Shown piece after piece: positions 3,224 to 64,000 of a DNA stretch of 64,000 bases. The notes under the pieces are model-generated. The model saw only the letters and a list, made by a program, of their open reading frames with translations, made no database searches and was not told the origin of the DNA. This DNA comes from Ahaetulla prasina (lineage: Eukaryota > Chordata > Lepidosauria > Squamata > Colubridae), in contig NC_080542.1 of assembly GCF_028640845.1 (NCBI RefSeq), positions 18,518,283 to 18,582,282 on the forward strand, read 5' to 3'. The first letter of the stretch is position 1. Each line of letters starts with the position of its first letter. The position numbers were made by a program, and so were the translations under genes.

Positions 3224-3276
3224 CTCAGTCAAACAGGACTGGTTGTCTTTCTTCGTAGTATTGTCCAGGTTGAAGC

Positions 3277-7615: not shown

Positions 7616-7821
7616 TATCAAAACCTTAGGAAAGGAAGAAAATTAAATAATTCTTCATAACATTTTTAAAGAATGGACTAGACTTGCTATCCTTGAAATC
7701 TACATGACTATATCACAATACACTACTATTAGTACGTTGGATCAATAAAACCTTTCATGGAATTGTATAACAGGGAGAACCAACCCACCGAACATGAACC
7801 AAGGGAATGTATTGACCTTAC

Positions 7822-11469: not shown

Positions 11470-12672
11470 TTAAAGCGCACCCGAAAGACCACAGGTAGCC
11501 AGTGCAGTCTGTGCAGGAGCGGTGTTACATGCGTCAATCACCCGCGCAGCTGCATTCTGAACTAACTGAAGCCTCCGAGTGCACTTCAAGGGGAGCCCCA
11601 TGTAGAGAGCATTGCAATAATCTAAGCGAGAGGTGACAAGAGCGTGAGTGACCATGCATAAGGCATCCCGATCAAGGAAGGGGCGCAACTGGCGAACCAA
11701 GCGCACCTGGTAAAAAGCTCTCCTGGAGACGGCCGTCAAATGATCTTCAAACAACAGCCGTCCATCCAGGAGAACACCCAAGTTGCGCACTCTTTCCATT
11801 GGGGCCAATGACTCGCCCCCAACAGTCAGCTGTGGTTGCAGCTGGCTGTACCAGGGTGCCGGCATCCACAGCCACTCCGTCTTGGAGGGATTAAGCTTGA
11901 GCCTGTTTCTCCCCATCCAGACCCGTACGGCTTCCAAGCACCGGAACAGCACTTCGACAGCTTCGTTGGGGTGGCCCGGGGTGGAAAAGTACAGCTGCGT
12001 GTCGTCAGCGTACAGTTGGTATCTCACCCCAAAGCCACTGATGATCTCGCCCAGTGGCTTCATATAGATGTTGAACAGGAGAGGCGAGAGAATCGGCCCC
12101 TGTGGCACCCCACAAGTGAGGCGCCTTGCGGTCGATCTCTGCCCCCCTGTCAACACCTTCTGCGACCGGTCAAAGAGATAGAAGGAGAACCACCGATAAA
12201 CGGTGCCTCCCACTCCCAAACTCTCCAACCGGTGCAGCAGGATACCATGGTCGATGGTATCAAAAGCCGCTGAGAGATCTAATAGGACCAGGGCAGAAAA
12301 ACAACCCCTATCCCTGGCCCTCCAGAGGTCATCCACCAACGCGACCAAAACTGTCTCTGTACTATATCCAGATCGGAAGCTGGACTGGAACGGGTCTAGA
12401 TAGACAGCTTCATCCAGGTACTGGGGTAGCTGCCATGCCACAACACTCTCTACAACCTTCGCAACAAAGTGAAGATTGGAGACTGGACGATAATTTCCCA
12501 AAATAGCTGGGTCCAGGGAAGGCTTCTTGAGGAGGGGTCTCACCACTGCCTCTTTCAAGGCGGCGGGGAAAACCCTTTCCAACAAAGAAGCATTTATAAT
12601 TCCCCGAGCCAGCCTCATGTCACCTCCTGTGTGGCCAGCACCAACCAGGAGGGACACGGGTCCAATAAACAT
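11470..12672 (-). pseudogene. L2-type LINE reverse transcriptase domain (decayed ORF2 segment)
   Basis: About 400 open codons carrying the finger-palm RT core with YADD catalytic box. It would copy element RNA at a nicked target. The segment is out of frame with the endonuclease part upstream and with the C-terminal part downstream, so no complete ORF2 product can be made. Confidence 0.85.
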
Positions 12673-17033: not shown

Positions 17034-17987
17034 TTATCCCATAAAGAGGATCTGTTTCCTTGCTATAGATTTTATAGATTTCTTGAAAGCAGCTTTTATC
17101 TCTTTATTTCTCAAGCTGTAAATGATGGGATTTAAACTTGGGGTCACCACTGTGTAGAGCAGAGAAAGGAACCTGCTATTGTCCATGGAATATTCTGAGT
17201 TGAGACGAATGTACGTAATAATGCCAGTTCCATAGAAAATGCAGACCACAGTGAGATGTGAGGAACAAGTGGAAAAGGCTTTGTGCCTGTTTTTGGCCAG
17301 TGGCATTGTGAAAATAGTGGAAATGATGAGGATGTATGAAAACAGGATGAGCAAAAGGGGTACCAGAATAACTAAAACTGTTACTGTGGCAATGGCCACC
17401 TCATTTTTGTAAGTATTGGTGGACGCCAGTCTCAGAACAGGCATAAGGTCACAGATGAAATGGCTGATTCTATTTGACCCAGAGAAGGGAAGGGTAAATA
17501 TTGAAATAGATTGCCCCACACACACAGAAATACCAATGGCCCATGAAGCAGCAGCAAGCTTAGTACATTCCCTGAGGTTCATGATAGATGGGTATTGCAA
17601 GGGTTGACAAATGGCAATGTAGCGATCATATGCCATAACACAAAGAAGACAACACTCAGTAATACCAAAGAGAATGAAGAAACTCATTTGACATTCACAG
17701 CCCCAAAAGGATATATTTTGGTTCTCTGATAACAAATTTACTAGCATCTTTGGGCTGATGGAGGAGGTGTAGCCAATTTCCGCAAAGGACAAGTTCCAGA
17801 GGAAGAAGTACATTGGGGTGTGCAGGGTAGGACTGAAAATGGTGAGGATCAAAATCAAGCTGTTGCCCATCAATGACATGAGATAAAATATTAGAACCAG
17901 GCAAAACAGAAGTTCTCGCATAGACTGAAAATCTGAAAAGCCAAGTAGGACAATCTCAATTAAGCAAGTCCAATTCTCTTTCTTCAT
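17034..17987 (-). CDS. Olfactory receptor C, class II, open frame intact
   Basis: 317-residue receptor starting at the ATG 17985-17987 (MKKENWTCLIE); the frame is open further upstream but that DNA is intron and CR1. A good acceptor (TTTGTTCTCAG) lies just before the start. Landmarks match OR B: NWT glycosylation site, GNS, PMYFFLWN, Cys97, MAYDRYIAIC, Cys179, KAFSTCSSH and PSLNPIIYSLRN. Differences: Cys169 is Ser (LPFSGSN), PLQYP is preceded by Gln, and TM2-3 reads LSFAEIGY. The Cys97-Cys179 pair needed for the family fold is kept. It is closest to OR B across the whole coding region and both flanks, so this pair is the most recent whole-unit duplication in the array. Confidence 0.88.
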   Translation of the reverse strand: MKKENWTCLIEIVLLGFSDFQSMRELLFCLVLIFYLMSLMGNSLILILTIFSPTLHTPMYFFLWNLSFAEIGYTSSISPKMLVNLLSENQNISFWGCECQMSFFILFGITECCLLCVMAYDRYIAICQPLQYPSIMNLRECTKLAAASWAIGISVCVGQSISIFTLPFSGSNRISHFICDLMPVLRLASTNTYKNEVAIATVTVLVILVPLLLILFSYILIISTIFTMPLAKNRHKAFSTCSSHLTVVCIFYGTGIITYIRLNSEYSMDNSRFLSLLYTVVTPSLNPIIYSLRNKEIKAAFKKSIKSIARKQILFMG

Positions 17988-18027
17988 GATTGAAACCTGA
18001 GAACAAAGGAGAAATAAAGAACAATTA

Positions 18028-18400
18028 CAGGAACTGGGCATGGATAGACTAGTGAAGAGAAAGACCAGGAAAGACATGACAGCAATATTCCAATATCTGA
18101 GGGGCTGCCACAGAGACGAAGGGGTCAAGCTATTCTCCAAAGCAGCTGAAGGCCAGACAAGGAATAATGTTTGGAAACTGGAGAGATTCAATCTAGAAAT
18201 AAGGAGAAATTTTCTGACAGTGAGAACAATCAACCAGTGGAACAGAAGTTGCCTTCGGAAGTTGTAGGAGCTTCATCACTGGAGGCTTTCAAGAAGAGAT
18301 TGGACTACCATTTGTCAGAAATGATGTAGGGTCTCCTGCTTAGGTGGGAGGTTGGACTAGATGGCCTACAAGGTCCCTTCGAACTCTGTTAGTCTGTTAA
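18028..18400 (+). mobile_element. CR1 LINE 3' end inserted in the OR C intron
   Basis: Starts within ORF2 (GGAACTGGGCATGGATAGAC), and runs through CAACCAGTGGAACAGAAGTTGCC to the terminal GGTTGGACTAGATGGCC and CGAACTCTGTTAG. It lies between the conserved donor and acceptor of OR C and is absent from the OR B intron. Confidence 0.88.
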
Positions 18401-24763: not shown

Positions 24764-26122
24764 GGTATCATACACGAAATAACCTCAAAAGAGAAAGGGG
24801 ACATTGAATAATTAAACAATTCTCCTAAAGAATTATTAAAATTATATTCCTTCCTCCAACTAGGTACCTGTATCCTGATTTCTTTGTATTACTGAGAAAT
24901 AGTAATATGGATTAAATCCTTGGAAATAGGAAAAGAAGCATGAAATTTTAATTTACTGTCCTGTAAATTTAATTGTGATTATATCACCTTAGTGAATCAC
25001 ACAGTCACTCTAGGACCTTTTATCACAACTGAAATGTCCTTAAACTCTCAATTTGGTCCCTCAAGTCTCTGTTCATTTTTTTAATTGGTTGGTCTACCAT
25101 ATGATAGTCCCTGTTACTAATTTAGGAATTTTTTCTTTAATCATGAAAATTCAGACAGAATCATAAATATTTTTACACATTTCCTTTGAAATACATCCTT
25201 TCTATATCTGAAAATTTGGGCTAGTATTTCAAATAGGAGTCACTTCAGATTTTATTCCACTAATCATTGCAGTCTGTAGGGGGCATTATCCCCAGTATCA
25301 TCTCCATTCCAAGACAGTTGAGCCAGCGCTATCTGAAACTTTCCAGCATGATGTCACAGTGTGCAGTTACCTTCCCACCCAAGTAGTGTGTATTTATCTA
25401 CTTGCCTTTGCATGCATTCAAAATGCTAAGTGGACAGGAGCTGGAGCAAGTAACAGGAGCTCACCCCGTTGTGTGGAGTTCAGGTCTCAAACCCAGGCTG
25501 CCAGCTTTCCAGCCAACAAGCTCAGCATCTTTAAATGCTGAGCCACTGCACCACTCCAGGCATTCCAATTAGGGAATCAAAAAATGCTAGTGAGTTAAGG
25601 CAGGCTAGAAATAAGGAAACCAGGAGTTCTAGTTCCTCCCAAGGCACAAAGGAAGCTGGGTGACCTTGAGCCAATAATTTTCTCTCAGCTTTAGGAAAGA
25701 GACAAGGGCAAATCACTTCTAAAAAATCTTGCAAAGAAAGCTGAAGAGATTTGTCCAGGAAGTGTTTGGGAATCAAATAAGATTGAACAGAAGGAGAAAA
25801 AAAAATAGGGGAAAGATTGGAGATTGGAGAAAAGTGGCTTAGATTGAAGAAAACTTAATTTCCCATTAGCTGCACTTTGTTTCCATTATATATCATCAAT
25901 GACCAGCCATTCCTCTAACATATCGAATTATCTTTTCTGTCTAGACAGATCAACAAAATATACAACTTTAGGCATGAGGTGTCCCGGGCTCAAAAGTCTT
26001 AAATATTAAAGCATCACTGAAAAACTGTTGATAAAACTCCCTTAATATTTCACTGAATATCCTTTGAAAATAAAACTTCATAAAGTTGCATAAAGTGAAG
26101 AAGCTATAAAATATGATCTTAC
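24764..26122 (-). other. Intron of OR D, carrying a SINE
   Basis: AT-rich DNA between the acceptor TTTTGAG next to the coding exon and the donor GTAAG at 26118-26122. It contains the Sauria SINE listed separately. Confidence 0.5.
25590..25790 (+). mobile_element. Sauria-type SINE
   Basis: AACCAGGAGTTCTAGTTCC (B-box area), then AAGCTGGGTGACCTTGAGCCAATAATTTTCTCTCAGC, then GCAAATCACTTCT and TTGCAAAGAAAGC. This is the central Sauria SINE domain. It sits in the same relative place as the copy at 40715 in OR E, so it predates the D/E duplication. Confidence 0.75.
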
Positions 26123-32695: not shown

Positions 32696-33538
32696 ATGGC
32701 ATCGCCTCAGAACTTTGTGCCTTTTAACCCAGTGACCGAATCGTGGGAGGCATTTGTAGCCCGTTTTGAATGCTTTCTTATTGCCAATGAATATACAAAC
32801 CTATCTAGTGAAAGGAAGCGTGCTTATTTCCTGGGTTTCTGTGGGGCAGAAATGTTCGAGACAGCCATGACATTGATGGCCCCCCAGTCAATTCATGCAG
32901 GGACTTGGGATGACTTCATGGCTAAATTAAAAAGACATTACGCCCCGACACCCTCCAGAATCGCCCGGCAGCTGTTTTACCATAGGGATCAGGCTGAGGG
33001 TGAATCGATAAACCAGTATGTAGCCACTTTACGGAAAGTGGTGCGTCATTGCGAATTTGTTGATCTGGATGATTACCTTTTGGACCGGCTCGTCAGCGGT
33101 GTCTGGGATGAACGCCTCAAGCGGCGTCTCATTGCTAAGCAGGACATCACATTTCAGATGGCATTAGATGAGGCATGTGCCTCAGAGCTGGCCACCCTCT
33201 CATTAGCTGATATGCCTCGAGGGCAGAGCCCACAGATAGCGAAAGGAGCAACAATTCATTTCAACAAAGCTGATCCACTATATGAGGAGGAGGAGGAGGA
33301 AGATGCTGTCCATCGCCTTAAAGAGGTTAAGAAACCAAATACTCATGCGGGAGATAGCCTCCCTCTGACTGGCTGTTTTGGGTGTGGGGGAAATCATATG
33401 CGAGCCACCTGTAATTTCAAAGACGCAATTTGCCGCCGTTGCGGCCGACGGGGCCATATTGCCCATCGGTCCAGCCTGAGAGGGTTCCACAAAAGGGTCC
33501 GTCAGCCGGCCTTTCTCTTGGAAGACGACCTCACCTGA
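32696..33538 (+). CDS. gag: gypsy Gag, 280 residues
   Basis: Structural nucleocapsid-capsid precursor of the retrotransposon particle. ATG in a good context (ACCATGG). The capsid-like region (about residues 15-165) has WEAFVARFECF, FLGFCGAEMF and FYHRDQAEGESINQYVATLR, matching the retrotransposon Gag fold. An acidic stretch EEEEEED is near residue 200. Zinc knuckle 1 is CFGCGGNHMRATC near 230. Knuckle 2 is CRRCGRRGHIAHRS, in which the last Cys is Ser. The end overlaps pol (open from 33415) in the -1 frame, consistent with frameshift expression, though I see no classic slippery heptamer. The gag frame is intact, unlike pol. Confidence 0.88.
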   Translation: MASPQNFVPFNPVTESWEAFVARFECFLIANEYTNLSSERKRAYFLGFCGAEMFETAMTLMAPQSIHAGTWDDFMAKLKRHYAPTPSRIARQLFYHRDQAEGESINQYVATLRKVVRHCEFVDLDDYLLDRLVSGVWDERLKRRLIAKQDITFQMALDEACASELATLSLADMPRGQSPQIAKGATIHFNKADPLYEEEEEEDAVHRLKEVKKPNTHAGDSLPLTGCFGCGGNHMRATCNFKDAICRRCGRRGHIAHRSSLRGFHKRVRQPAFLLEDDLT

Positions 33539-36500
33539 GATCCAGGAGGCCGCAGGATGACTGCTATGCCATTTTCCGTGATGAGATGCGAGGAACAAGG
33601 ATCAGGTGGCGATCTGAGGAACCGATCCAGCAGAAAATCCGAATTTCCGTCCTGATCGAAGGGCGGCCATGCTTGATGGAAGTTGATACCGGATCTGCAA
33701 CTTCCATAGTCTCCTGGAGCACGATAAAGCGTCTGGTGCCTACTATTGCTAAGAAGCGTCTGAAGCCTTGTGCGCTGTTATTAAAAGACTATCAGGGACG
33801 GCCAATTCCCATTGTGGGTAGTGGGAAATTCAGGGTACAATTCAAGAAATTTGTAGGCCGCCTATCACTGGTAGTTGTAGATGGCTCATTGCCTAGTCTT
33901 CTGGGGCTTAATTGGTTCGAAGCCCTGGGTTTGACTATTCAGGGTGTTAACTCGATTGGAGCTAGTCAGCTGGATACACTGGTCAGGGAATTTCCCACTG
34001 TGTTCGATGGCCAGTTGGGAAAATATACCGGAATGCCTGTTTCATTTAACTTAGACCCTAGGGTGGTGCCGCGCAGATTAAAACCGCGCCAGGTGCCATT
34101 TGCCCTGAAGCCTAGGGTGGATGCAGAATTGGACAAACTCATTGCCCAGGGCGTTTTAGAACCAGTAGATTATGCCCAATGGGAGACCCCCATTGTGACT
34201 CCCATTAAGGCGGATGGTTCAATCCGCATCTGCGCGGACTATAGGGCAACCATTAATCGAGCATTACAAGCCCATGCATATCCAGTGCCAGTGGTGCAGC
34301 ATCTGCTGCACTCCTTGGGGCAAGGATCCATCTTCGTGAGGCTTGACTTAGCACAGGCATACCAACAATTGCCTGTGGATGAGTCCACAGCAGCAGCACA
34401 GACGATTGTCACTCACCGAGGGGCGTTCAAGTGTCGCCGCCTCCAATTTGGCGTCAGTGTGGCCCCAGGGTTGTTCCAATGCCTCATGGAACGCCTACTC
34501 CACGGAATACCCGGGGTGGTGCCGTATTTCGATGACGTGTTGGTTTTGGCAGCAAGCACTCCGGAACTGATGTCCAGACTACGCCAGGTGCTAGTTAAGT
34601 TCAGGGATGTGGGGCTCAAAGTTAAGAAAAGCAAGTGTGTAGTTGCTGTGCCCCAGGTAGAATTCCTAGGGTTCCTAGTGGATAGGTCGGGTTTACACCC
34701 CATACGGCCAAGACCAAGGCAATCCTTGATGCGCCGACACCCCGCAACAAGTCAGAGTTACAGGCATTCCTGGGGCTCTTAAACTTTTACGCAATCTTTC
34801 TGCCACACAAGGCTTCGGTTGCAGAGCCTCTCCACCGCCTGTTGGATAGCAGGTCCCCGTGGGTTTGGAATGCGAATGCTGCTGCTGCTTTCCAGGCTGT
34901 CAAGCAACTCTTGGTGTCTAACACAGTTCTTACACAGTTCAACGAAAACCTGCCGCTTGTCCTCTCCTGCGATGCGTCTCAGTATGGGGTTGGCGCTGTG
35001 TTGAGTCATCGGCTGCCCAACGGGTCGGAAGCCCCGATTGCATTCTTTTCTCGAACCTTGGCTGCCGCGAACGCAACTACTCACAGTTGGATAAAGAAGC
35101 ATTGGCGTTGGTTGCGGGGGTCAAGCGGTTCCATGAGTATCTCTACGGTCGCCCGTTTGAACTTGTTACAGATCACAAGCCGCTGTTGGGGATTTTGGCT
35201 GGGGATAGACAGACTCCGCAAGTACTATCACCAAGAATGACCAGATGGTCGGTGTTCCTGGCAGCTTATTCCTATTCCTGGTCTATAGGCCTGGGAAACA
35301 TTTGAGCCATGCTGACGCTGAGCCGTTGCCCATTGATGACCAAGGTGAAAGACCCGGCTCCAGCGTCCCATGTTTTTCTGATTGACGGTTCCGCCTTTCC
35401 TGTTACTGCTTGTGACATTGCTAGAATGTCTGGCTTGGACAGAGTCATCTCAAAAGTTCTTGATTGGGTTCTCCGTGGATGGCCCCAGGGTCCTGTCAGC
35501 CCTGAATTGCAGCCTTATAAGCGAAGGCAGCACGAGCTCTCTACCCAACAGGGTTGCCTCCTCTGGGGGCATAGGGTTGTAGTTCCGCCTCCGACAGCCC
35601 ATTCTAGGGACACTTCACCGGGGTCACCCGGGCATTGTTAGGATGAAGGCCCTGGGTAGGAGCTACCTGTGGTGGCCAGGACTAGATAAAGACATAGAGG
35701 CCTGTGTGTCGGCCTGTCACCGGTGTCAGGAGACAAGACCGCTGCCGCCTAAGTCTCCCCCTAGAGAGTGGGAGGAGCCTAGGGGTCCTTGGTCCCGCAT
35801 CCATATAGATTTTGCGGGCCGTACCAGGGCAAGTATTCTTAGTGGTCGCCGATGCTTTCTCGAAGTGGGTGGAAATCGCACTAATGCATTCCACCACTTC
35901 AGAAGCCGTCATTAGAACTTTGTGACGGTTGTTTGTAACCCATGGGTTACCCGACCTTGTGGTCTCGGACAACGGGCCACAGCTAACGTCCGCCCACTTT
36001 GAGTCATTCTTAGCGGGCCTAGGAATACGCCATGCTCTCATTTCCCTGTTTCATCCGGCCAGTAATGGCCGGGCAGAACAACAGTCCGGTCAGTGAAAGA
36101 GGCATTGGCCAGGTCGGGCCCAGGGGGCTGGCAGGAGAGGTTGGATGAGTACCTCCTGGGGCAGCATTCCACACCGTGCCCACTTACGAATAAGAGCCCA
36201 GCAGAGTTACTCATGGGCAGGCGTTTGAGGACCACACTTGATAGATTGCACCCCCAATACTCACCTAGTCAGCCATTGGACTCCATGGGGGCAAACAGGA
36301 GATTTGATTTGGGGAGGCGGTGTATGCCCGAATTACAGCGGCCACCCCCTATGGTTCCCAGGAAAGATCGTGGGAATCACCGGCCCGTGCTCATACAGGG
36401 TCGAGTTAGATGAGGGTAGAGTGTGGCGCAGACATTGTGACCAGCTCAGGGCCCGGCGTCAGGTTGGGGATGGGCAGCTGCCAGAGTGGGGCACTCAGGA

Positions 36501-39254: not shown

Positions 39255-40211
39255 TTATGATACTGGATTATTACCTAAGAAGACCCATTTCCTTGCCAGC
39301 GATATTTTGAAAGCAGCTTTTATCTCTTTGTTCCTCAAACTGTAAATGATGGGGTTCAAGCTTGGGGTCACTACTGTGTAGAGTAGGGCAAGAAACCTGT
39401 TATTGTCCTGAGAATTTGCTGAGTTGGGATGAATGTAGGCAGCAGTGATTGTTCCATAGTAGAGGAGAACAACAGTGAGATGTAAGGAACAAGTTGAAAA
39501 TGCTTTGTGCCTGTTCATGGCCACTGGCATAGTGAGAATAGTAGAGATGATGAGGAGGTACGTAAAGAGGATGAGTAAAAGGGGGACCAAGACAAACACC
39601 ACAGTTAGTGTGGCATTGGCCACTTCATTTTTGTAAGTATCGATGGAAGTCAATTTCAGAACAGGCATAATATCACAGAAGAAATGGCTTATTCTGTTTG
39701 ACCCACAGAAGGGAAGGGTGAAGATTGAAATAGATTGCCCCAAACCCACAGAAGCACGAATGGTCCATGAGATGGCAGCTAGGTTAGCACATTTCTTATC
39801 ATTCATGATAGAGGGGTATTGCAAGGGCTTGCAAATGGCAACATAGCGGTCATACGCCATAGCACAAAGAAGACAACACTCTGTGACACTAAAGAGAAGG
39901 AAGAAGCACATCTGACACCCACAGCCCCAAAATGATATCGTCTGGTTTCCTGATAACAAATTTACCAGCATCTTTGGGCTGATGGAGGAGGTGTAGCCAA
40001 TTTCCAAAAAGGACAAATTCCACAGGAAGAAGTACATTGGGGTGTGAAGGGTGGGACTAGCAATGGTGAGGATCAAAACTAGGCTGTTGCCCATCAAAGT
40101 CATGAGATAGAATATTAGAACCAAACAAAACACAAGTTCTTCCATAGATTTGAAATCTGAGAAGCCTAGCAGGAGAAATTCAGTCAAGCAGGATTGGTTG
40201 TCTATTTTCAT
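39255..40211 (-). CDS. Olfactory receptor E, class II, intact
   Basis: Intact 318-residue receptor. Start is the ATG 40209-40211 (MKIDNQSC), 17 bases or so after a strong acceptor (TTGTTTTCAG); upstream in-frame codons are intron. Landmarks: NQS glycosylation site at residue 5, GNSLVLIL, PMYFFLWN, Cys97, MAYDRYVAICKPLQYP, LPFCGSNRISHFFCD, KAFSTCSLH (SLH in place of SSH) and PSLNPIIYSLRN, ending LGNNPVS. The 5' half matches OR D most closely while from about residue 240 onward it is almost identical to OR A, suggesting gene conversion. With OR B it is one of the two best candidates for a working receptor here. Confidence 0.92.
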   Translation of the reverse strand: MKIDNQSCLTEFLLLGFSDFKSMEELVFCLVLIFYLMTLMGNSLVLILTIASPTLHTPMYFFLWNLSFLEIGYTSSISPKMLVNLLSGNQTISFWGCGCQMCFFLLFSVTECCLLCAMAYDRYVAICKPLQYPSIMNDKKCANLAAISWTIRASVGLGQSISIFTLPFCGSNRISHFFCDIMPVLKLTSIDTYKNEVANATLTVVFVLVPLLLILFTYLLIISTILTMPVAMNRHKAFSTCSLHLTVVLLYYGTITAAYIHPNSANSQDNNRFLALLYTVVTPSLNPIIYSLRNKEIKAAFKISLARKWVFLGNNPVS

Positions 40212-40516
40212 GGTATCATCCAGATGGAAGCCTGAAAACAAAAAGGGAACATTAAATAAAGAATTAAACAATTCTTCTAAAGAATTATTAATAATTATAT
40301 CACCTTCTCAAATTAGACACTTATGTGTTTTTCATTTGCACTTACTCAGTAATTTGGATTAAATCCTTTGGAAATAGGAAAGAAAGGCTGCAATTTTAAT
40401 TTGAATTAAAATTTGAATTTGAATTTATTTGTGATTATATTATCTGAGTGAATTACACAATCACTTTAAGATCTTTTCTCAGAACTCAGTAGTCCTTAGA
40501 TCTCAATTTGGTCCCT

Positions 40517-40714: not shown

Positions 40715-40935
40715 AGCTAGGAAGTAAAAAGGCATCAAACTAGAATCTGGGAGACCGGGAATTCTAGTCCAGCCCAAGGCACAAAGGTAGCTGGGTGACA
40801 TTTGGCCAATCATTTTCTCTCAGTCATAGGAAAGCAACAAGGGCAAAACACTTCTGAAAAAAACCTTACAAAAAACATGAAAAATTTGTCCAGACAATCT
40901 TTGGGAATCAGACAGAATTGAATGGAAGAAAAAAA
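40715..40935 (+). mobile_element. Sauria-type SINE
   Basis: AATCTGGGAGACCGGGAATTCTAGTCC, GGTAGCTGGGTGACATTTGGCCAATCATTTTCTCTCAG and GCAAAACACTTCT; orthologous in place to the copy in the OR D intron. Confidence 0.78.
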
Positions 40936-50705: not shown

Positions 50706-51165
50706 AAGTCATATAATAATAAGGTGACCAACTTTTTTACAATGAGGCGGGCACAAATAAATTGAAGAAAAAAATATCATAAATAAAAGAAACATTTTAT
50801 TCATTGTAACAACAATACAGAATACACTATAATATGATAAATGCATAATAAAAACATTTGTAACAATAAATTTTATATTTATATTGTAATTATGCCATCA
50901 ATTAATTATTAAAACTGAAACAATAACATAAGTGAATAAACTTGTAAATAAAATTATACATATTTGGAAATTATTAGATAATGAATTAATAAAACATGAA
51001 TTATTGTGCTCACTTGTGTATGATTGAATATTCACTGAGAAAGAAGTGAATCTCATACGTGCATGTGTGCCGTGTCGTGTTTCAATAAGAAGTAAACAAA
51101 ACCACTTGCGTGCGGTGCACTCTCTCAAAACAATTCTTCTGTGTGGAGCATATGCGTCTCATAAT

Positions 51166-52469
51166 CGCATCTGATACCATCGACCATGGTATCTTGCTGC
51201 GCCGGTTAGAGGGGTTGGGAGTGGGAGGCACCGTTTATCTGTGGTTCTCCTCTTACCTCTCTGACCGGACGCAGACGGTGTTGACAGGGGGGCAGAGATC
51301 GACTCCGAGGCGCCTCATGTGTGGGGTGCCGCAGGGATCGATTCTCTCGGCTCTCCTGTTCAACATCTACATGAAGCCACTGGGTGAGATCATCAGTGGT
51401 TTTGGGGTGAGATACCAACTGTATGCTGATGACATGCAACTGTACTTTTCCACCCCAGGCCACTCCAACGAAGCTATCGAAGTACTGTCCCGGTGTCTGG
51501 AGGCCGTACAGGTCTGGATGGGGAGGAACAGGCTCAATCTTAATCCCTCCAAGACGGAGTGGCTGTGGATGCCGGCACCCCGGTACAGTCAGCTGCAGCC
51601 GCGGCTGTCTGTTGGGGGCGAGTCATTGGCCCCAATGGAAAGGGTGCGCAACTTGGGCGTGCTCCTGGATGGGCGTCTGTCTTTCAAAGATCATTTGACA
51701 GCCGTCTCCAGGAGAGCTTTTTATCAGGTTCGCCTGATCCACCAGTTGCGCCCCTTCCTGGACCGGGATGCCCTATGCACGGTCACTCATGCTCTCGTTA
51801 CCTCTCGTCTGGACTATTGCAATGCTCTCTACATGGGGCTCCCCTTGAAGAGCACCCGGAGACTCCAGCTAGTCCAGAAAGTGGCTGCGCGGGTTATTGA
51901 GGGAGCAGTTTGGAGCTCCCATGTAACACCTATCCTGCGCAGACTGCACTGGCTGCCTGTGGTCTTCCGGGTGCACTTCAAGATGTTAGTTACTATCTTT
52001 AAAGCGCTCCATGGCTTAGGACCGGGATACTTACGGGACCGTCTACTGCCAATGTCTATCTCCCAATGACCGGTGCGCTCTCACAGAGAGGGGCTCCTCA
52101 GGGTGCCGTCAGCCAAGCAATGTCGGCTGGCGGCCCCCAGGGGGAGGGCCTTCTCTGTGGGGGCTCCTACCCTATGGAACGAGCTTCCAACAAATATCTG
52201 ACCTTAGGACCTTCCGCCGCGAACTTAAAACCTACTTATTTCGTCTTGCTGGATTCTCTTAAATTTGAAATTTTATATTATCAAATTGATTTATGGGTTT
52301 TAAATTTTTTAGTAAATTTTAGAGGGTAATATTTTTATCTATAAGTAGCCATATTAAATAGGTTTTTTAAGGGTTTTTTTTAGTTTTGTATTGTTGTTTT
52401 CTTTCTGTATTTTATTTGTGGCTGTACACCGCCCTGAGTCCTTTGGGAGAAGGGCGGTCTATAAATAAA

Positions 52470-54515: not shown

Positions 54516-55320
54516 GATAAAAATGGGCACAAATCTCAGCTAATGAGAAATTAAGCTTCTTTCAGCCTAAATCAGATTTCTGCAAGTTCCAATGCTTCAA
54601 TTATCTTAGAATTTCAAGATTTCCAGAAAAAATGTCAGCCAATTTCATGCATAAAAAGCACATTATTCCAAGATAATTAATTTTAAATATTGAAGATATT
54701 GTTACAGAATACAGAATTCCTGAAAATAATAAACAAATTATAAAGAATCATTCTAATCAATTTAATTCAATTATTTCTCTTGATAGCAAACTTTCTCAAA
54801 TCTTTTCTAGCATATCCCTCCTTCTAATCGTCATAATTTTGAACAGTTGTTCAACGAACGGTCATAACTTGAGGACTCCCTGCATTATAAAAACCATATC
54901 ATAGAATCATTTTTCAATATCATCCTAACAAATTGTGATTGAAAATTTCATCGATTTTGATCTTACAGGGAGATCTTTGAATATATTTTTAGCACAGGGG
55001 GCAATTTAATTTGAATTTTTTTTTAATTTAACTTTTAAATTGAAATTAAAGTCAATTAAAATTTTCTTGTTGTGATGGGAATTGGTTCTGGTGTCTTTAC
55101 CCAAAAGAACGGCACACATTTATTCAATTTGGAAAATTCCCCCATATTTAGGAGGCACTAGGTTGGCTAAACTATGAGTGCTAGTTTATAAACCTCATCG
55201 TTTGTAATTTACATGATTAAAACTATGAGTTTTAAAAGCCACAAAGGACCCAAATTCACAATAAGACTTTATTTTGGTTTCCAATAGCTGTATTACTTTG
55301 CTACTGAAGACATTTATCTC
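54516..55320. other. Intergenic, AT-rich
   Basis: No OR exon seen although an orphan OR promoter lies upstream on the plus strand. A short piece of the interspersed repeat is at 54845-54890 (GTCATAACTTGAGGACTCCCTG). Confidence 0.45.
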
Positions 55321-55324
55321 AGCC

Positions 55325-55450
55325 TGAAGAGCAAGAGGGTAGAGTGATTAAGGTGCTGGACTACAAGTGCTGAGATCCATATTCCAGTTTCTCCTCCCCC
55401 ACACAACGGTAGCTTCCTATAGCTGGGCCAGTCCATTTCTCTCAGACTTC
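55325..55450 (+). repeat. Edge monomer of the satellite, most SINE-like
   Basis: GAGTGATTAAGGTGCTGGACTACAAGTGCTGAGATCCATATTCCAGTTTC, then CGGTAGCTTCCTATAGCTGGGCCAGTCCATTTCTCTCAG. It keeps GTGCTGGACTA typical of a tRNA-type SINE head, which the inner monomers have lost. Confidence 0.65.
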
Positions 55451-58400
55451 AGGGGCAACGTGATTCAGTGGTGAAAGTGTTAGATTTTTAAAAATGGAAA
55501 AAGCCAAGTTGCAGTTCCCCATCAACAATGGAAGTTTCTTTTGACTGGCCCAGCCCATTTCTGTCAGACAAATGGGAAAGTTGGTCCACTGGTGAAGATG
55601 CTGCTCTAGAAGCTAAAAGATCCAAATTCTAGTTTCTCCCCCCTCCCCTCCCAGCAATGGAAGCTTCCTGGAACTGGGCCAGTCCATTTCTCTCAGACTT
55701 TCAGGGGCAAGATGATTCAGGAGTGAAAGTGTTGGATTTTTAAAAATGGACGAAGCCAAGTTGTAGTTCCCCCTCAACAATGGAAGTTTCTTTTGACTGG
55801 CCCAGCCCATTTCTGTCAGACAAATGGGAAAGTTGATCCAGTGGTGAAGATGCTGCTCTAGAAGCTAAAAGATCCAAATTCTAGTTTCTCCCCCCTCCCC
55901 TCCCAGCAATGGAAGCTTCCTGGAACTGGGCCAGTCCATTTCTCTCAGACTTTCAGGGGCAAGATGATTCAGGAGTGAAAGTGTTGGATTTTTAAAAATG
56001 GACGAAGCCAAGTTGTAGTTCCCCCTCAACAATGGAAGTTTCTTGGACTGGGCCAGTCCATTTCTGTCAGATAAAACGGCAAGTTGGTCCAGTGGTGAAA
56101 ATTCTGCTCTAGAAGCTAAAAGTTCTAGTTTCTTCCCCCTCCCCTCCCCAGCAATGGAAGCTTCCTGTAACTGGGCCAGTCCATTTCTCTCAGACTCTCG
56201 GGCAAAATGATTCAGCTGTGAAAGTGTTGGATTTTTAAAAACGGACAAAGCCAAGTTGTAGTTCCCCCTCAACAATGGAAGTTTCTTTTGACTCGCCCAG
56301 CCCATTTCTGTCAGACAAATGAGACAGTTGGTCCAGTGGTGAAGATGCTGCTCTAGAAGCTAAAAGATCCAAGTTTTAGTTTCTCCCCCCTCCCCTCCCA
56401 GCAATGGAAGCTTACTGGAACTGGGCCAGTCCATTTCTCTCAGACTTTCAGGGGCAAGATCATTCAGGAGTGAAAGTGTTGAATTTTTAAAAATGGACAA
56501 AGCCAAGTTGTAGTTCCCCGTCAACAATGGAAGTTTCTTGGACTGGGCCAGCCCATTTCTGTCAGAAAAAGGGGCAAGCTGGTCCAGTGGTGAAGATGCT
56601 GCTCTAGAAGCTAAAAGATCCAAGTTCTAGTTTCTCCCCCCTCCCCTATCCAGCAATGGAAGCTTCCTGGAACTGGGCCAGTCCATTTCTCTCAGGCGCA
56701 AGGTGATTCAGTGGTGAAAGTGTTGGATTTTTAAAAATGGACAAAGCCAACTTGTAGTTCCCCCTCAATAATGGAAGTTTCTTGGACTGGACCAGCCCAT
56801 TTCTGTCAGACAAAGGGGCAAGTTGGTCCAGTGGTGAAGATGCTGCTATAGAAGCTAAAAGTTCTAGTTTCTCCCCCTTGCCCTCCCCAGCAATGGAAGC
56901 TTCCTGTAACTGGGCCAGTCCATTTCTCTCAGACTCTCAGGGGCAAGGTGATTCAGTGGTGAAAGTGTTGGATTTTTAAAAATGGACAAAGCCAAGTTAT
57001 AGTTCCCCCTCAACAATGGAAGTTTCTTGGACTGGGCCAGTCCATTTCTATCAGATAAAACGGCAAGTTGGTCCAGTGGTGAAAATGCTGCTCTAGAAAC
57101 TAAAAGTTCTAATTTCTCACCCCTCCCCTCCCCAGCAATGGAAGCTTCCTGTAACTGGGCCAGTCCATTTCTCTCAGACTCTCAGGGGGAATATGATTCA
57201 GCTGTGAAAGTGTTGGATTTTTAAAAATGGACAAAGCCAAGTTGTAGTTCCCCCTCAACAATGGAAGTTTCTTTTGACTCGGCCAGCCCATTTCTGTTAG
57301 ACAATGGGGCAAGTTGGTCCAGTGGTGAAGATGCTGGTCTAGAAGCTAAATGATCCAAGTTCTAGTTTCTCCCCCCTCCCCTCCCCAGCAATGGAAGCTT
57401 CCTGTAACTGGGCCAGTCCATTTCTCTCAGACTTCAGGGGCAAGGTGATTCAGTGGTGAAAGTGTTAGATTTTTAAAAATGGACAAAGCCAAGTTGCAGT
57501 TCCCCCTCAACAATGGAAGTTTCTTGGACTGGCCCAGCCCATTTCTGTCAGACAAATGTGAAAGTTGATCCAGTGATGAAGATGCTGCTCTAGAAGATAA
57601 AAGATCCAAATTCTAGTTTCTCCCCCCTCCCCTCCCAGCAATGGAAGCTTCCTGGAACTGGGCCAGTCCATTTCTCTCAGACTTTCAGGGGCAAGATGAT
57701 TCAGGAGTGAAAGTGTTGGATTTTTAAAAACGGACAAAGCCAAGTTGTAGTTCCCCCTCAACAATGGAAGTTTCTTGGACTGGGCCAGTCCATTTCTATC
57801 AGATAAAACGGCAAGTTGGTCCAGTGGTGAAAATTCTGCTCTAGAAGCTAAAAGTTCTAGTTTCTTCTCCCTCCCCTCCCCAGCAATGGAAGCTTCCTGT
57901 AACTGGGCCAGTCCATTTCTCTCAGACTCTCAGGGGCAAGGTGATTCAGTGGTGAAAGTGTTGGATTTTTAAAAACGGACAAAGCCAAGTTGTAGTTCCC
58001 CCTCAACAATGGAAGTTTCTTTTGACTGGCCCAGCCCATTTCTGTCAGACAAATGAGACAGTTGGTCCAGTGGTGAAGATGCTGCTCTAGAAGCTAAAAG
58101 ATCCAAGTTTTAGTTTCTCCCCCCTCCCCTCCCAGCATTGGAAGCTTACTGGAACTGGGCCAGTCCATTTCTCTCAGACTTTCAGGGGCAAGATCATTCA
58201 AGAGTGAAAGTGTTGAATTTTTAAAAATGGACAAAGCCAAGTTGTAGTTCCCCCTCAACAATGGAAGTTTCTTGGACTGGGCCAGCCCATTTCTGTCAGA
58301 AAAAGGGGCAAGCTGGTCCAGTGGTGAAGATGCTGCTCTAGAAGCTTAAAGTTCTAGTTTTCCCCCCCCTCCCCAGCAATGGAAGCTTCCTGCAACTGGG

Positions 58401-61400
58401 CCAGTCCATTTCTCTCAGGCGCAAGGTGATTCAGTGGTGAAAGTGTTGGATTTTTAAAAATGGACAAAGCCAAGTTATAGTTCCCCCTCAACAATGGAAG
58501 TTTCTTGGACTGGGCCAGTCCATTTCTATCAGATAAAACGGCAAGTTGGTCCAGTGGTGAAAATGCTGCTCTAGAAGCTAAAAGTTCTAATTTCTCCCCC
58601 CTCCCCTCCCCAGCAATGGAAGCTTCCTGCAACTGGGCCAGTCCATTTCTCTCAGGCGCAAGGTGATTCAGTGGTGAAAGTGTTGGATTTTTAAAAATGG
58701 ACAAAGCCAAATTTTTGTTCCCCCTCAATAATGGAAGTTTCTTGGACTGGACCAGCCCATTTCTGTCAGACAAAGGGGCAAGTTGGTCCAGTGGTGAAGA
58801 TGCTGCTCTAGAAGCTAAACGATCCAAGTTCTAGTTTCTCCCCCCTCCCCTCCCCAGCAATGGAAGCTTCCTGTAACTGGGCCAGTCCATTTCTCTCAGT
58901 CTTCAGGGGCAAAGTGATTCAGTGGTGAAAGTGTTAGATTTTAAAAAATGGACAAAGCCAAGTTTCAGTTCCCCCTCAACAATGGAAGTTTCTTGGACTG
59001 GGCCAGTCCATTACTGTCAGACAAAGGGGCAATTTGGTCCAGGGGTGAAAATTCTGCTCTAGAAGCTTAAAGTTCAAGTTTCTTCCCCCTCCCCTCCCCA
59101 GCAATGGAAGCTTCCTGTAACTGGGCCAGTCCATTTCTTTCAGACTCTCAGGGGCAAAATGATTCAGCTGTGAAAGTGTTGGATTTTTAAAAATGGATAA
59201 AGCCAAGTTGTAGTTCCTCCTCAACAATGGAAGTTTTTTGGACTTGGCCAGTCCATTTCTGTCAGATAAAACGGAAAATTGGTCCAGTGGTGAAAATGCT
59301 GCTCTAGAAGCTAAAAGTTTTAGTTTTTCCCCCTCTCCCCAGCAATGGAAGCTTCCTGTAACTGGGCCAGTCCATTTCTCTCAGACTCTCAGGGGCAAGG
59401 TGATTCAGTGGTGAAAGTGTTGGATTTTTAAAAATGGACAAAGCCAAGTTATAGTTCCCCCTCAACAATGGAAGTTTCTTGGACTGGGCCAGTCCATTTC
59501 TATCAGATAAAACGGCAAGTTGGTCCAGTGGTGAAAATGCTGCTCTAGAAGCTAAATGATCCAAGTTCTTGTTTCTCCCCCCTCCCCTCCCCAGCAATGG
59601 AACCTTCCTGTAACTGGGCCAGTCCATTTCTCTCAGACTTCAGGGGCAAGGGAATTCAGTGGTAAAAGTGTTAGATTTTTAAAAATGGACAAAGCCAAAT
59701 TTTAGTTCCCCCTCAATAATGGAAGTTTCTTGGACTGGGCCAGCCCATTTCTGTCAGGCAAAGGGGCAAGTTGGTCCAGTGGTGAAGATGCTGCTCTAGA
59801 AGCTAAACGATCCAAGTTCTAGTTTCTCCCCCCTCCCCTCCCCAGCAATGGAAGCTTCCTGTAACTGGGCCAGTCCATTTCTCTCAGACTTCAGGGGCAA
59901 AGTGATTCAGTGGTGAAAGTGTTAGATTTTTAAAAATGGACAAAGCCAAGTTTCAGTTCCCCCTCAACAATGGAAGTTTCTTGGACTGGGCCAGTCCATT
60001 ACTGTCAGACAAAGGGGCAATTTGGTCCAGGGGTGAAAATTCTGCTCTAGAAGCTTAAAGTTCTAGTTTCTCCCCCCTCCCCTCCCCAGCAATGGAAGCT
60101 TCCTGTAACTGGGCCAGTCCATTTCTCTCAGACTCTCAGGGGCAAGGTGATTCAGTGGTGAAAGTGTTGGATTTTTAAAAATGGACAAAGCCAAGTTGTA
60201 GTTCCTCCTCAACAATGGAAGTTTTTTGGACTTGGCCAGTCCATTTCTGTCAGATAAAACGGAAAATTGGTCCAGTGGTGAAAATGCTGCTCTAGAAGCT
60301 AAAAGTTTTAGTTTTTCCCCCTCTCCCCAGCAATGGAAGCTTCCTGTAACTGGGCCAGTCCATTTCTCTCAGACTCTCAGGGGCAAGGTGATTCAGTGGT
60401 GAAAGTGTTGGATTTTTAAAAATGGACAAAGCCAAGTTATAGTTCCCCCTCAACAATGGAAGTTTCTTGGACTGGGCCAGCCCATTTCTGTCAGGCAAAG
60501 GGGCAAGTTGGTCCAGTGGTGAAGATGCTGCTCTAGAAGCTAAACGATCCAAGTTCTAGTTTCTCTCCCCTCCCCAGCAATGGAAGCTTCCTGTAACAGG
60601 GCCAGTCCATTTCCCTCAGACTCTCAGGGGCAAGGTGATTCAGCTGTGAAAGTGTTGGATTTTTAAAAATGGATAAAGCCAAGTTGTAGTTCCTCCTCAA
60701 CAATGGAAGTTTTTTGGACTTGGCCAGTCCATTTCTGTCAGATAAAACGGAAAATTGGTCCAGTGGTGAAAATGCTGCTCTAGAAGCTAAAAGTTTTAGT
60801 TTTTCCCCCTCTCCCCAGCAATGGAAGCTTCCTGTAACTGGGCCAGTCCATTTCTCTCAGACTCTCAGGGGCAAGGTGATTCAGTGGTGAAAGTGTTGGA
60901 TTTTTAAAAATGGACAAAGCCAAGTTGCAGTTCACCCTCAACAATGGAAGTTTCTTGGACTGGGCCAGCCCATTTCTGTCAGGCAAAGGGGCAAGTTGGT
61001 CCAGTGGTGAAAATGCTGCTCTAGGAGCTTAAAGTTCTAGTTTCTCCCCCCTCCCCTCCCCAGCAATGGAAGCTTCCTGGAACTGGGCCAGTCCATTTCT
61101 CTCAGACTTCAGGGGCAAAGTGATTCAGTGGTGAAAATGTTGGATTTTAAAAAATGGACAAAGCCAAGTTGCAGTTACCCCTCAATAATGGAAATTTCTT
61201 TTGACTGGGCCAGTCCATTTCTATCAGATAAAACGGCAAGTTGGTCCAATGGTGAAAATGCTGCTCTAGAAGCTAAAAGATCCAAATTCTAGTTTCTCCC
61301 CCCTGCCCTCCCCAGCAATGGAAGCTTCATAGAATTGGGCCAGTCCATTTCTCTCAGACTCTCAGGGGCAAAATGATTCAGCTGTGAAAGTGTTGGATTT

Positions 61401-64000
61401 TTAAAAATGGACAAAGCCAAGTTGTAGTTCCTCCTCAACAATGGAAGTTTTTTGGACTTGGCCAGTCCATTTCTGTCAGATAAAACGGAAAATTGGTCCA
61501 GTGGTGAAAATGCTGCTCTAGAAGCTAAAAGTTTTAGTTTTTCCCCCTCTCCCCAGCAATGGAAGCTTCCTGTAACTGGGCCAGTCCATTTCTCTCAGAC
61601 TCTCAGGGGCAAGGTGATTCAGTGGTGAAAGTGTTGGATTTTTAAAAATGGACAAAGCCAAGTTATAGTTCCCCCTCAACAATGGAAGTTTCTTGGACTG
61701 GGCCAGTCCATTTCTATCAGATAAAACGGCAAGTTGGTCCAGTGGTGAAAATGCTGCTCTAGAAGCTAAAAGTTCTAATTTCTCCCCCCTCCCCTCCCCA
61801 GCAATGGAACCTTCCTGTAACTGGGCCAGTCCATTTCTCTCAGACTTCAGGGGCAAGGGAATTCAGTGGTAAAAGTGTTAGATTTTTAAAAATGGACAAA
61901 GCCAAATTTTAGTTCCCCCTCAATAATGGAAGTTTCTTGGACTGGACCAGCCCATTTCTGTCAGACAAAGGGGCAAGTTGGTCCAGTGGTGAAGATGCTG
62001 CTCTAGAAGCTAAACGATCCAAGTTCTAGTTTCTCCCCCCTCCCCTCCCCAGCAATGGAAGCTTCCTGTAACTGGGCCAGTCCATTTCTCTCAGACTCTC
62101 AGGGGCAAGGTGATTCAGTGGTGAAAGTGTTGGATTTTTAAAAATGGACAAAGCCAAGTTGTAGTTCCTCCTCAACAATGGAAGTTTTTTGGACTTGGCC
62201 AGTCCATTTCTGTCAGATAAAACGGAAAATTGGTCCAGTGGTGAAAATGCTGCTCTAGAAGCTAAAAGTTTTAGTTTTTCCCCCTCTCCCCAGCAATGGA
62301 AGCTTCCTGTAACTGGGCCAGTCCATTTCTCTCAGACTCTCAGGGGCAAGGTGATTCAGTGGTGAAAGTGTTGGATTTTTAAAAATGGACAAAGCCAAGT
62401 TGTAGTTCCCCCTCAACAATGGAAGTTTCTTGGACTGGGCCAGCCCATTTCTGTCAGACAAAGGGGCAAGTTGGTCCAGTGGTGAAGATGCTGCTCTAGA
62501 AGCTAAACGATCCAAGTTCTAGTTTCTCCCCCCTCCCCTCCCCAGCAATGGAAGCTTCCTGTAACTGGGCCAGTCCATTTCTCTTAGACTTCAGGGGCAA
62601 GGTGATTCAGTGGTGAAAATGTTGGATTTTTAAAAATGGACAAAGCCAAGTTGCAGTTCCCCATCAAAAATGGAAGTTTCTTGGACTGGGCCAGCCCATT
62701 ACTGTCAGACAAAGGGGCAATTTGGTCCAGGGGTGAAGATGCTGCTCTAGAAGCTAAAAATTCTAGTTTCTCCCCCCTCCCCTCCCCAGCAATGGAAGCT
62801 TCCTGGAATTGGGCCAGTCCATTTCTCTCAGGCGCAAGGTGATTCAGTGGTGAAAGTGTTGGATTTTTAAAAATGGACAAAGCCAAGTTGTAGTTCCCCC
62901 TCAATAATGGAAGTTTCTTGGACTGGGCCAGCCCATTTCTGTCAGGCAAAGGGGCAATTTGGTCCAGTGGTGAAGATGCTGCTCTAGAAGCTAAAAGTTC
63001 TAGTTTCTTCCCCCTCCCCTCCCCAGCAATGGAAGCTTTCTGTAACTGGGCCAGTCCATTTCTCTTAGACTTCAGGGGCAAGGTGATTCAGTGGTGAAAA
63101 TGTTGGATTTTTAAAAATGGACAAAGCCAAGTTGCAGTTCCCCCTCAACAATGGAAGTTTCTTGGACTGGGCCAGCCCATTACTGTCAGACAAAGGGGCA
63201 ATTTGGTCCAGGGGTGAAGATGCTGCTCTAGAAGCTTAAAGTTCTAGTTTCCCCCCCCTCCCCAGCAATGGAAGCTTCCTGTAACTGGGCCAGTCCATTT
63301 CTCTCAGACTCTCAGGCGCAAGGTGATTCAGTGGTGAAAGTGTTGGATTTTTAAAAATGGACAAAGCCAAGTTGTAGTTCCCCCTCAATAATGGAAGTTT
63401 CTTGGACTGGGCCAGCCCATTTCTGTCAGGCAAAGGGGCAATTTGGTCCAGTGGTGAAGATGCTGCTCTAGAAGCTAAAAGTTCTAGTTTCTTCCCCCTC
63501 CCCTCCCCAGCAATGGAAGCTTTCTGTAACTGGGCCAGTCCATTTCTCTCAGACTCTCAGGGGCAAGGTGATTCAGTGGTGAAAGTGTTGGATTTTTAAA
63601 AATGGACAAAGCCAAGTTATAGTTCCCCCTCAACAATGGAAGTTTCTTGGACTGGGCCAGTCCATTTCTATCAGACTTCAGGGCAAGGTGATTCAGTGGT
63701 GAAAATGCTGCTCTAGAAGCTAAAAGTTCTAATTTCTCCCCCCTCCCCTCCCCAGCAATGGAACCTTCCTGTAACTGGGCCAGTCCATTTCTCTCAGACT
63801 TCAGGGGCAAAGTGATTCATTGGTGAAAGTGTTAGATTTTTAAAAATGGACAAAGCCAAGTTTCAGTTCCCCCTCAACAATGGAAGTTTCTTGGACTGGG
63901 CCAGCCCATTTCTGTCAGGCAAAGGGGCAAGTTGGTCCAGTGGTGAAGATGCTGCTCTAGAAGCTAAACGATCCAACTTCTAGTTTCTCTCCCCTCCCCA
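55325..64000. repeat. SINE-derived dimeric tandem satellite, about 35 dimers, running off the window
   Basis: Tandem array of alternating half-monomers of about 122 bases. Half A: CAATGGAAGCTTCCTG...CTCTCAG...GGTGATTCAGTGGTGAAAGTG...GCCAAGTTGTAGTTCCCCC. Half B: CAATGGAAGTTTCTTGG...CTGTCAG...TTGGTCCAGTGGTGAAGATG...AAGTTCTAGTTTCTCCCCC. Dimer starts (CAATGGAAGCTT) at 55655, 55907, 56152, 56402, 56654, 56891, 57136, 57389 and 57639 give periods of 237-253. Both halves carry an A-box-like and a B-box-like motif at tRNA spacing and the GGGCCAGTCCATTTCTCTCAG segment of Sauria SINEs. Recurrent minus-strand open frames are repeat artefacts. Minor 1-15 base length variation comes mainly from GATCCA and ACTTCAGGGG indels. 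Confidence 0.93.

What the first reader, a model, noticed from the sequence alone, without database searches (positions are those of the whole stretch)
55325..64000. A satellite array apparently built from a tRNA-derived SINE
Each half-monomer has three parts in the same order as the Sauria SINEs at 25590 and 40715: an A-box-like motif (TGGTCCAGTGG, for example 59772-59782, fitting TRGYNNARNGG), a B-box-like motif (AGTTCTAGTTT, 59815-59825) 43 bases later as in a tRNA, and the SINE body (GGAAGCT...GGGCCAGTCCATTTCTCTCAG against GGAAGCTGGGTGACCTTGAGCCAATAATTTTCTCTCAG). So a dispersed retroposon seems to have become a tandem satellite of more than 8.6 kb.
Basis: partly seen in the sequence, partly recalled or inferred. 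Interest (0 to 1): 0.78.

Follow-up and report, generated by a model that had tools for sequence, protein, structure and literature searches.

The report
Satellite array grown from a SINE
In a reptile (probably snake) genome, the front half of an ordinary jumping element has been copied over a hundred times in a row at one place; this is a clear new example of a process already described in scaled reptiles.

Summary
From about 55331 to the window's end lies a head-to-tail array, which runs on to about 69844 in window coordinates: 14.5 kb with one 100-N gap. I scored 116 units of about 122 bp, 58 of type A and 58 of type B, alternating as a roughly 245-bp dimer; identity is 91-93% within a type, 71% between types.

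The SINE origin holds. Profiles built from dispersed SINEs match unit after unit, same strand and register, over SINE positions about 4-117; no plus-strand match reaches the 3' half.

The named parent is probably wrong. The window's two comparison SINEs are Sauria/Squam1, but 57 of 58 A units fit Squam3 better, median 36 against 15 bits; B units are weak and divided by profile used. No canonical B-box exists.

Two satellite-specific patterns hit only this locus in 1.77 Gb (57 of 57 matches, up to 3 mismatches); one 211-bp fragment sits 74 kb away.

SINE-derived satellites of Squam1, Squam2 and Squam3 are published (PMC10702118). This locus differs from the main snake type in unit boundaries. 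New member of a known kind; modest interest.

The parts
55331..55446 (+). Leftmost recognisable unit: SINE head and start of body, more diverged than the inner units, with the Squam3-type stretch GTGATTAAGGTGCTGGACTA
   Evidence: Head-only profiles: Squam3 19.2 bits, Squam1 14.9; full-length profiles: Squam3 16.1, Squam1 17.7; 79-80% identical to the best inner units over about 148 bp; its 23-base head pattern has 439 genome-wide matches (itself included) at up to 3 mismatches, 0 for the reversed control
55404..64000 (+). Body of the array inside the window: about 245-251-bp dimers of type B and type A half-units of about 122 bp; continues beyond the window to about 69844 in window frame
   Evidence: TRF; continuation; 116 half-units scored, 69 of them in the window, alternating strictly up to 67353 in window frame
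59847..60090 (+). One example dimer (B unit 59847-59968, A unit 59969-60090 in the phase that starts at AATGGAAG)
   Evidence: unit table; nearly the same stretch was the query
59772..59782 (+). A-box-like motif TGGTCCAGTGG of an A half-unit
   Evidence: read; 44 exact copies of this 11-mer in the array; among the less variable stretches of the A unit (10% of windows as or less variable)
59815..59825 (+). B-box-like motif AGTTCTAGTTT, degenerate; corresponds to AGTTCTAGTCC of the dispersed SINE consensus
   Evidence: strict B-box count 0 in the array; not unusually conserved (64% of windows as or less variable)
59927..59931 (+). TTTTT run between the A-box-like and B-box-like positions of a B half-unit; would act as a Pol III stop (recalled rule)
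   Evidence: 63 runs of T5 or longer in the array, present in 52 of 58 B units and 5 of 58 A units
25594..25794 (+).
   Evidence: Squam1 profile 179.5 bits, Squam3 51.8
40729..40929 (+). Second dispersed Squam1/Sauria SINE
   Evidence: Squam1 profile 149.6 bits, Squam3 53.0

Best explanation
The array is a SINE-derived satellite. The 5' part of one Squam3-type SINE copy (tRNA-derived head plus the start of the body, positions about 4-117, plus a short linker) was duplicated in tandem. Two neighbouring copies diverged into types A and B, and the A+B dimer then became the unit that was multiplied and homogenised by unequal exchange or gene conversion at this one locus. Shown: tandem structure, dimeric order, the SINE region used, same strand and register throughout, and no close satellite-pattern match outside this locus. 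Inferred: Squam3 rather than Squam1 as the parent (well supported for A units only), the order of events, unequal exchange as the mechanism, and that the array is by-product DNA with no role of its own.
For: Squam1 profile (28 dispersed copies, array not used): 106 plus-strand hits in the array, all ending at or before profile position 136, so none in the 3' part. Squam3 profile (21 copies): 96 plus-strand hits, 93 of them ending in the bin 110-119. Head-only profiles of 21 copies each: Squam3 110 hits, 2581 bits; Squam1 106 hits, 1293 bits; leave-one-out sorting of dispersed heads 28 of 28 and 21 of 21 correct. Per unit, head-only: A 57 of 58 better with Squam3 (median 35.8 against 15.4 bits), B 48 better with Squam3, 7 with Squam1, 3 unscored. 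At 11 sites that differ between the families, Squam3-like / Squam1-like / neither: left unit 5/1/5, half A 5/2/4, half B 4/2/5. The Squam1 body goes with a GCATCAGG head (87 exact pattern matches), not GTGCTGG (1 match, whose GTGCTGG does not look like the homologous place). A against B half-units: score 51 against shuffle mean 11.3, 0 of 2000; identity 0.909 within A, 0.926 within B, 0.714 between. Single locus: 19 of 19 and 38 of 38 pattern matches lie in the array, reversed controls 0. The same kind of event is seen elsewhere in this genome: L078 has 8.7 copies of a 61-bp piece between SINE-like sequence on both sides.
Against: With full-length profiles B units lean to Squam1 (34 against 10, 14 unscored; medians 8.2 and 5.8 bits), the leftmost unit too (17.7 against 16.1), and 29 of 90 overlapping hit pairs favour Squam1. 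Half B alone fits SINEs only modestly (6 of 2000 shuffles as good). The parent's 3' half is not found beside the array: no Squam3 hit within 3 kb on either side, and one Squam1 hit at chance level (E 0.074) on the left. At the right end the array runs into the 3' end of a Bov-B-like LINE (CTGG overlap) and then a truncated 3' end of another SINE, so in-situ growth inside one SINE copy is not proven. Left of 55331 a further 25-30 bp resemble the end of a preceding unit in register (1 of 200 shuffles as good with seven anchor letters held fixed; unanchored tests 64, 112 and 202 of 1000), so the left edge may not be the SINE's own 5' end.
Confidence: 0.8

Rival explanations
1. The parent is a Sauria (Squam1) SINE; the Squam3-like letters come from an older Squam1 subfamily.
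For: The Squam1 profile detects the units, and 33 of 106 hits run on into positions 130-139. With full-length profiles 34 of 44 scorable B units and the leftmost unit score higher with Squam1. Head identity between the families is 109 of 120. Half A scores slightly higher against the Squam1 consensus than against a 12-copy Squam3-like consensus (37.5 against 34.5).
Against: A units, the better preserved SINE matches, prefer Squam3 in 57 of 58 cases with either pair of profiles; head-only totals 2581 against 1293 bits; diagnostic sites lean to Squam3 in all three sequences tested; a Squam1 body with a GTGCTGG head gave 1 exact pattern match genome-wide against 87 for GCATCAGG.
Confidence: 0.14
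2. The array is a Pol III-transcribed locus whose SINE promoter is kept by selection and makes a short RNA.
For: A strict A-box in 52 of 58 A units; the A-box of A units is among the less variable stretches.
Against: 0 canonical B-boxes; the B-box of A units and both boxes of B units are not unusually conserved; T5 runs in 52 of 58 B units would end transcripts (terminator rule recalled). ARAGORN finds no tRNA gene, and Rfam nothing at its gathering scores.
Confidence: 0.06
3. A tRNA gene, or an unrelated sequence resembling a SINE by chance, was the source.
For: Amphibian satellites with tRNA-like segments and no confirmed SINE parent exist (described in PMC10702118).
Against: The match runs beyond the tRNA-like head into the SINE body (GGGCCAGTC..TTTCTCTCAG); an unrelated tRNA-derived SINE of this genome scores at chance (506, 792 and 975 of 1000 shuffles as good, where it was mislabelled Squam3C).
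Confidence: 0.02

Closest known systems
sSat3, Squam3-derived satellites of snakes (Vassetzky, Kosushkin and Ryskov 2023, PMC10702118, main text read whole; figures and supplements not seen)
   Same: Tandem array from part of a Squam3 SINE; unit shorter than the SINE; about 90% unit similarity in long loci; alternating subvariants reported for up to 25% of lengthy loci in two snakes.
   Different: The main snake unit is 67 nt, SINE positions 42-108; here the half-unit is about 122 bp, positions about 4-117, covering both promoter-box positions, in a fixed A/B dimer. Here one locus; there thousands of loci in most snakes (15 in the python, none in a blind snake), typically subtelomeric in the best assembled chromosomes.
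sSat1, Squam1/Sauria-derived satellites (same paper)
   Same: Same class of event in another squamate SINE family.
   Different: Abundant only in Anolis, 145-nt unit from about half of the Squam1 body; this array covers the head, and its A units fit Squam3 better.
L078 array in this genome (C3:211603900-211606900)
   Same: Tandem expansion inside a Squam3-like SINE copy.
   Different: 61-bp unit, 8.7 copies, SINE-like sequence kept on both sides; by eye close to the published 42-108 type.
PcH-Sat of the limpet Patella caerulea, suggested to derive from Nin-SINE (PMC11121367; search listing and start of abstract only)
   Same: Satellite attributed to a SINE.
   Different: Other SINE family and phylum; not compared here.

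Membership tests
SINE-derived satellite (sSat, broad sense) | More than four tandem SINE-derived units close together (definition in the paper's methods) | tested here: met
   116 half-units scored; SINE profiles match
SINE-derived satellite (sSat, broad sense) | Unit shorter than the parent SINE and from a fixed part of it | tested here: met
   About 122 bp against SINE consensus lengths of 223 (Squam1) and about 236 (Squam3); positions about 4-117, no plus-strand hit in the 3' part
sSat3 (Squam3 parent) | Parent is Squam3 rather than Squam1 | tested here: met
   A units 57 of 58; head-only totals 2581 against 1293 bits, 49 of 49 control copies sorted correctly. Against: B units and leftmost unit lean to Squam1 with full-length profiles. 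Family names were assigned from features (CORE-type body, TAAA tail, TC run near position 110; Bov-B-like 3' end for Squam1), partly recalled, not from published consensus letters
sSat3SRP, the main snake type | 67-nt unit covering Squam3 positions 42-108 | tested here: not met
   Half-unit about 122 bp over positions about 4-117; so not filed under this type
sSat3SRP, the main snake type | Longer loci prefer subtelomeric regions | tested here: inconclusive
   Array lies at 18.57-18.59 Mb of the 151-Mb contig C4, so it looks interior, but contig ends were not checked for telomeres
SINE-derived satellite (sSat, broad sense) | A terminal unit reaching the SINE's own end (common, not universal, in the paper) | tested here: inconclusive
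   Left unit starts near the SINE 5' end, but traces of a preceding unit may lie further left; the right end is a Bov-B-like LINE end, not the parent's 3' end
sSat1 (Squam1/Sauria parent) | Parent is Squam1 | tested here: not met
   with the contrary B-unit result
Active Pol III SINE promoter | Canonical A and B boxes | tested here: not met
   Strict A-box in 52 of 58 A units and 0 of 58 B units, strict B-box 0 in the array

The most novel reading that the evidence does not exclude
A satellite caught young: a head-spanning, dimeric Squam3 satellite present at a single, apparently interior locus beside olfactory receptor genes, which has just begun to move. A 211-bp piece of it (B plus most of A), 96.7% identical to the array's own dimer at 62328-62538, sits inverted 74 kb away between CR1-like sequences, as if the array can already seed new places.
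Probability: 0.2. Interest if true: 0.5.

Novelty: new member of a known kind. Interest (0 to 1): 0.32.

Why it matters
It is a clean example of a retroposon becoming a satellite, with unit borders, dimer formation and the likely parent family readable at one locus. It suggests that the part of a Squam3 SINE that becomes tandem is not fixed within one genome (positions about 4-117 here, roughly 39-105, by eye, at L078). It also warns that Squam1 and Squam3 heads are so alike in this genome that naming the parent needs family-specific profiles. The principle itself is published.

Tried and rejected
Fetching five other copies of that flank showed it to be the 3' end of a LINE (Bov-B name recalled), followed by a truncated 3' end of another SINE, so that reading was withdrawn. 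In one search a SINE from L036 was labelled Squam3C; it is a different tRNA-derived SINE and serves only as an unrelated control. The 12-copy consensus is biased because its copies were picked with letters of the left unit; searches replaced it. Target-site duplication of the LINE piece: the longest shared words are 5 bases, TGTAA and CAATG, too short to rely on. CENP-B box: 0 matches. Repeats inside 55200-55520: none found. A search for the four terms satellite, tRNA-derived SINE, snake and tandem gave 0 papers.

Limits: the profiles were built from best-scoring copies, not a random sample. Squam1: 28 of the 30 loci cut out (L026 and L027, the window's own copies, dropped), from 40 matches scored of 1844 candidates; the head-only profile used 21 of these 28. 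Squam3: 20 plus-strand places of 43 listed matches, plus L071. The genome DNA search skips very common words, did not list the array itself, and its counts are lower bounds; absence elsewhere is shown only for two patterns at up to 3 mismatches. One of 117 intervals between unit anchors was dropped, the one at the N gap. Nine of the 33 ORFs listed were scanned against Pfam.

Full report
What is there. The window is C4:18518283-18582282 of a 1.77-Gb genome. TRF finds 55404-63968 as one array of period 251. Reading on past the window, the array continues to about 69844 in window frame (C4:18588126), giving 14,514 bp from 55331, including one gap of 100 N at 68625-68724. I cut it at the AATGGAAG anchor: 118 anchors, 117 intervals, 116 units kept and one dropped at the gap; 58 are of type A and 58 of type B. 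They alternate strictly up to 67353; six same-type neighbours follow between 67353 and 68729, around the gap. Mean identity is 0.909 within A, 0.926 within B and 0.714 between, and does not fall with distance up to 32 units. So the true repeat is an A+B dimer whose halves are themselves related (0 of 2000 shuffles as good).

Is it a SINE? I collected dispersed SINEs from the same genome. The window's own SINE at 25600-25830 led to 28 further copies of a family with a Bov-B-like 3' end, which I call Squam1 (Sauria) (label partly recalled). A profile of these gives 111 hits in the array, 106 on the plus strand and 5 on the minus strand at chance level (E 5-7). The plus hits lie within SINE positions 3-136; most A units match at E 1e-2 to 1e-6 for the 104 kb searched, while B units match weakly or only in part. 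Tandem arrays made of shuffled dimers gave no hit at E<=1 in 200 trials. The match covers both the tRNA-like head and the start of the SINE body, so a tRNA gene is not the better source; ARAGORN reports no tRNA and Rfam nothing at gathering scores.

Which SINE? A head motif of the leftmost unit has 439 near matches in the genome (itself included), reversed control 0. These led to a second family with a CORE-type body and a TAAA-like tail, which fits the description of Squam3. The consensus heads of the two families share 109 of 120 aligned positions. Head-only profiles of 21 copies each sort the dispersed copies correctly (28 of 28, 21 of 21) and score the array at 1293 bits (Squam1) and 2581 bits (Squam3), the leftmost unit at 14.9 and 19.2. 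Unit by unit, A prefers Squam3 in 57 of 58 cases with head-only and with full-length profiles; B prefers Squam3 in 48, Squam1 in 7 (3 unscored) with head-only profiles, but Squam1 in 34, Squam3 in 10 (14 unscored) with full-length ones, at medians of 6-11 bits. The leftmost unit also prefers Squam1 with full-length profiles (17.7 against 16.1). Diagnostic sites lean to Squam3. A GTGCTGG head joined to the Squam1 body occurs once in the genome, GCATCAGG 87 times. On balance I put the parent at Squam3. A check on that label: another array, L078, repeats a 61-bp piece lying roughly at positions 39-105 of my Squam3 consensus (by eye), with SINE-like sequence on both sides, close to the published 67-nt snake unit at positions 42-108.

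How far does it spread? A 34-base junction pattern with up to 3 mismatches has 19 matches in the genome and a 35-base half-B/half-A pattern 38; all 57 lie in this array. DNA searches found one further place, C4:18499307-18499517, inverted, 74 kb left of the array. This 211-bp piece is 96.7% identical to 62328-62538 and lies between CR1-like sequences (CR1 name recalled).

Edges. The leftmost unit begins near the SINE 5' end, but 25-30 bp further left resemble the end of a preceding unit in register (1 of 200 anchored shuffles as good), while unanchored tests are not significant. On the right the array meets the 3' end of a Bov-B-like LINE with a CTGG overlap and then a truncated 3' end of another SINE. 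No Squam3 piece lies within 3 kb on either side. Whether the array grew inside one SINE copy at this site is therefore open.

Function. The A-box of type A units is fairly well kept (10% of windows as or less variable); the other three box positions are not (64%, 66%, 92%), no unit has a canonical B-box, and T5 runs occur in 52 of 58 B units. I see no evidence here for a transcribed or centromeric role, though neither was testable beyond sequence; the best reading is passive expansion by unequal exchange. That mechanism is inferred, not shown.

Literature. SINE-derived satellites from Squam1, Squam2 and Squam3 were surveyed in 56 squamate genomes in 2023 (PMC10702118, main text read whole; figures and supplements not seen). 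It describes alternating subvariants, longer terminal units and minor variants. A search for Squam3 with satellite returned only that paper; a search for SINE-derived satellite(s) or sSat3 returned it, a 2025 review that cites it (passages read) and four unrelated papers. The head-spanning 122-bp unit is not described for snakes in the main text; it may be in the supplements.

Noticed in passing
window 2318-3232, 6674-7621, 17037-18233, 39258-40271, all minus strand: Four of nine reading frames scanned match olfactory receptors (Pfam 7tm_4, E 6e-47 to 6e-51): the array lies beside olfactory receptor genes.
   Followed up: partly
L001 1501-1711 (C4:18499307-18499517, minus): A 211-bp piece of the satellite, 96.7% identical to an inner dimer, inverted 74 kb away, with a CR1-like segment of roughly 80 bp repeated on both sides (by eye).
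   Followed up: partly
L078 247-771 (C3:211603900-211606900): Independent 61-bp x 8.7 tandem inside a Squam3-like copy with SINE-like sequence on both sides. C12:3394429-3394810 looks similar from its repeated partial matches.
   Followed up: partly
L028-L055 and L079-L098: Squam1 and Squam3 consensus heads are 109 of 120 identical in this genome although their 3' parts differ; the paper calls these families independent in origin. A head exchange would explain it.
   Followed up: no
L002 from 5845 (C4:18588127 onward): Right border of the array: short 3' end of a Bov-B-like LINE, 96-100% identical over about 53 bp to the 39 other matches listed, joined by CTGG, then a truncated 3' end of another SINE.
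   Followed up: partly
window 11473-12672 (-), 32696-34779 (+), 51110-52066 (+): Reading frames with reverse transcriptase matches, and a gag-like one at 32696-33535.
   Followed up: no
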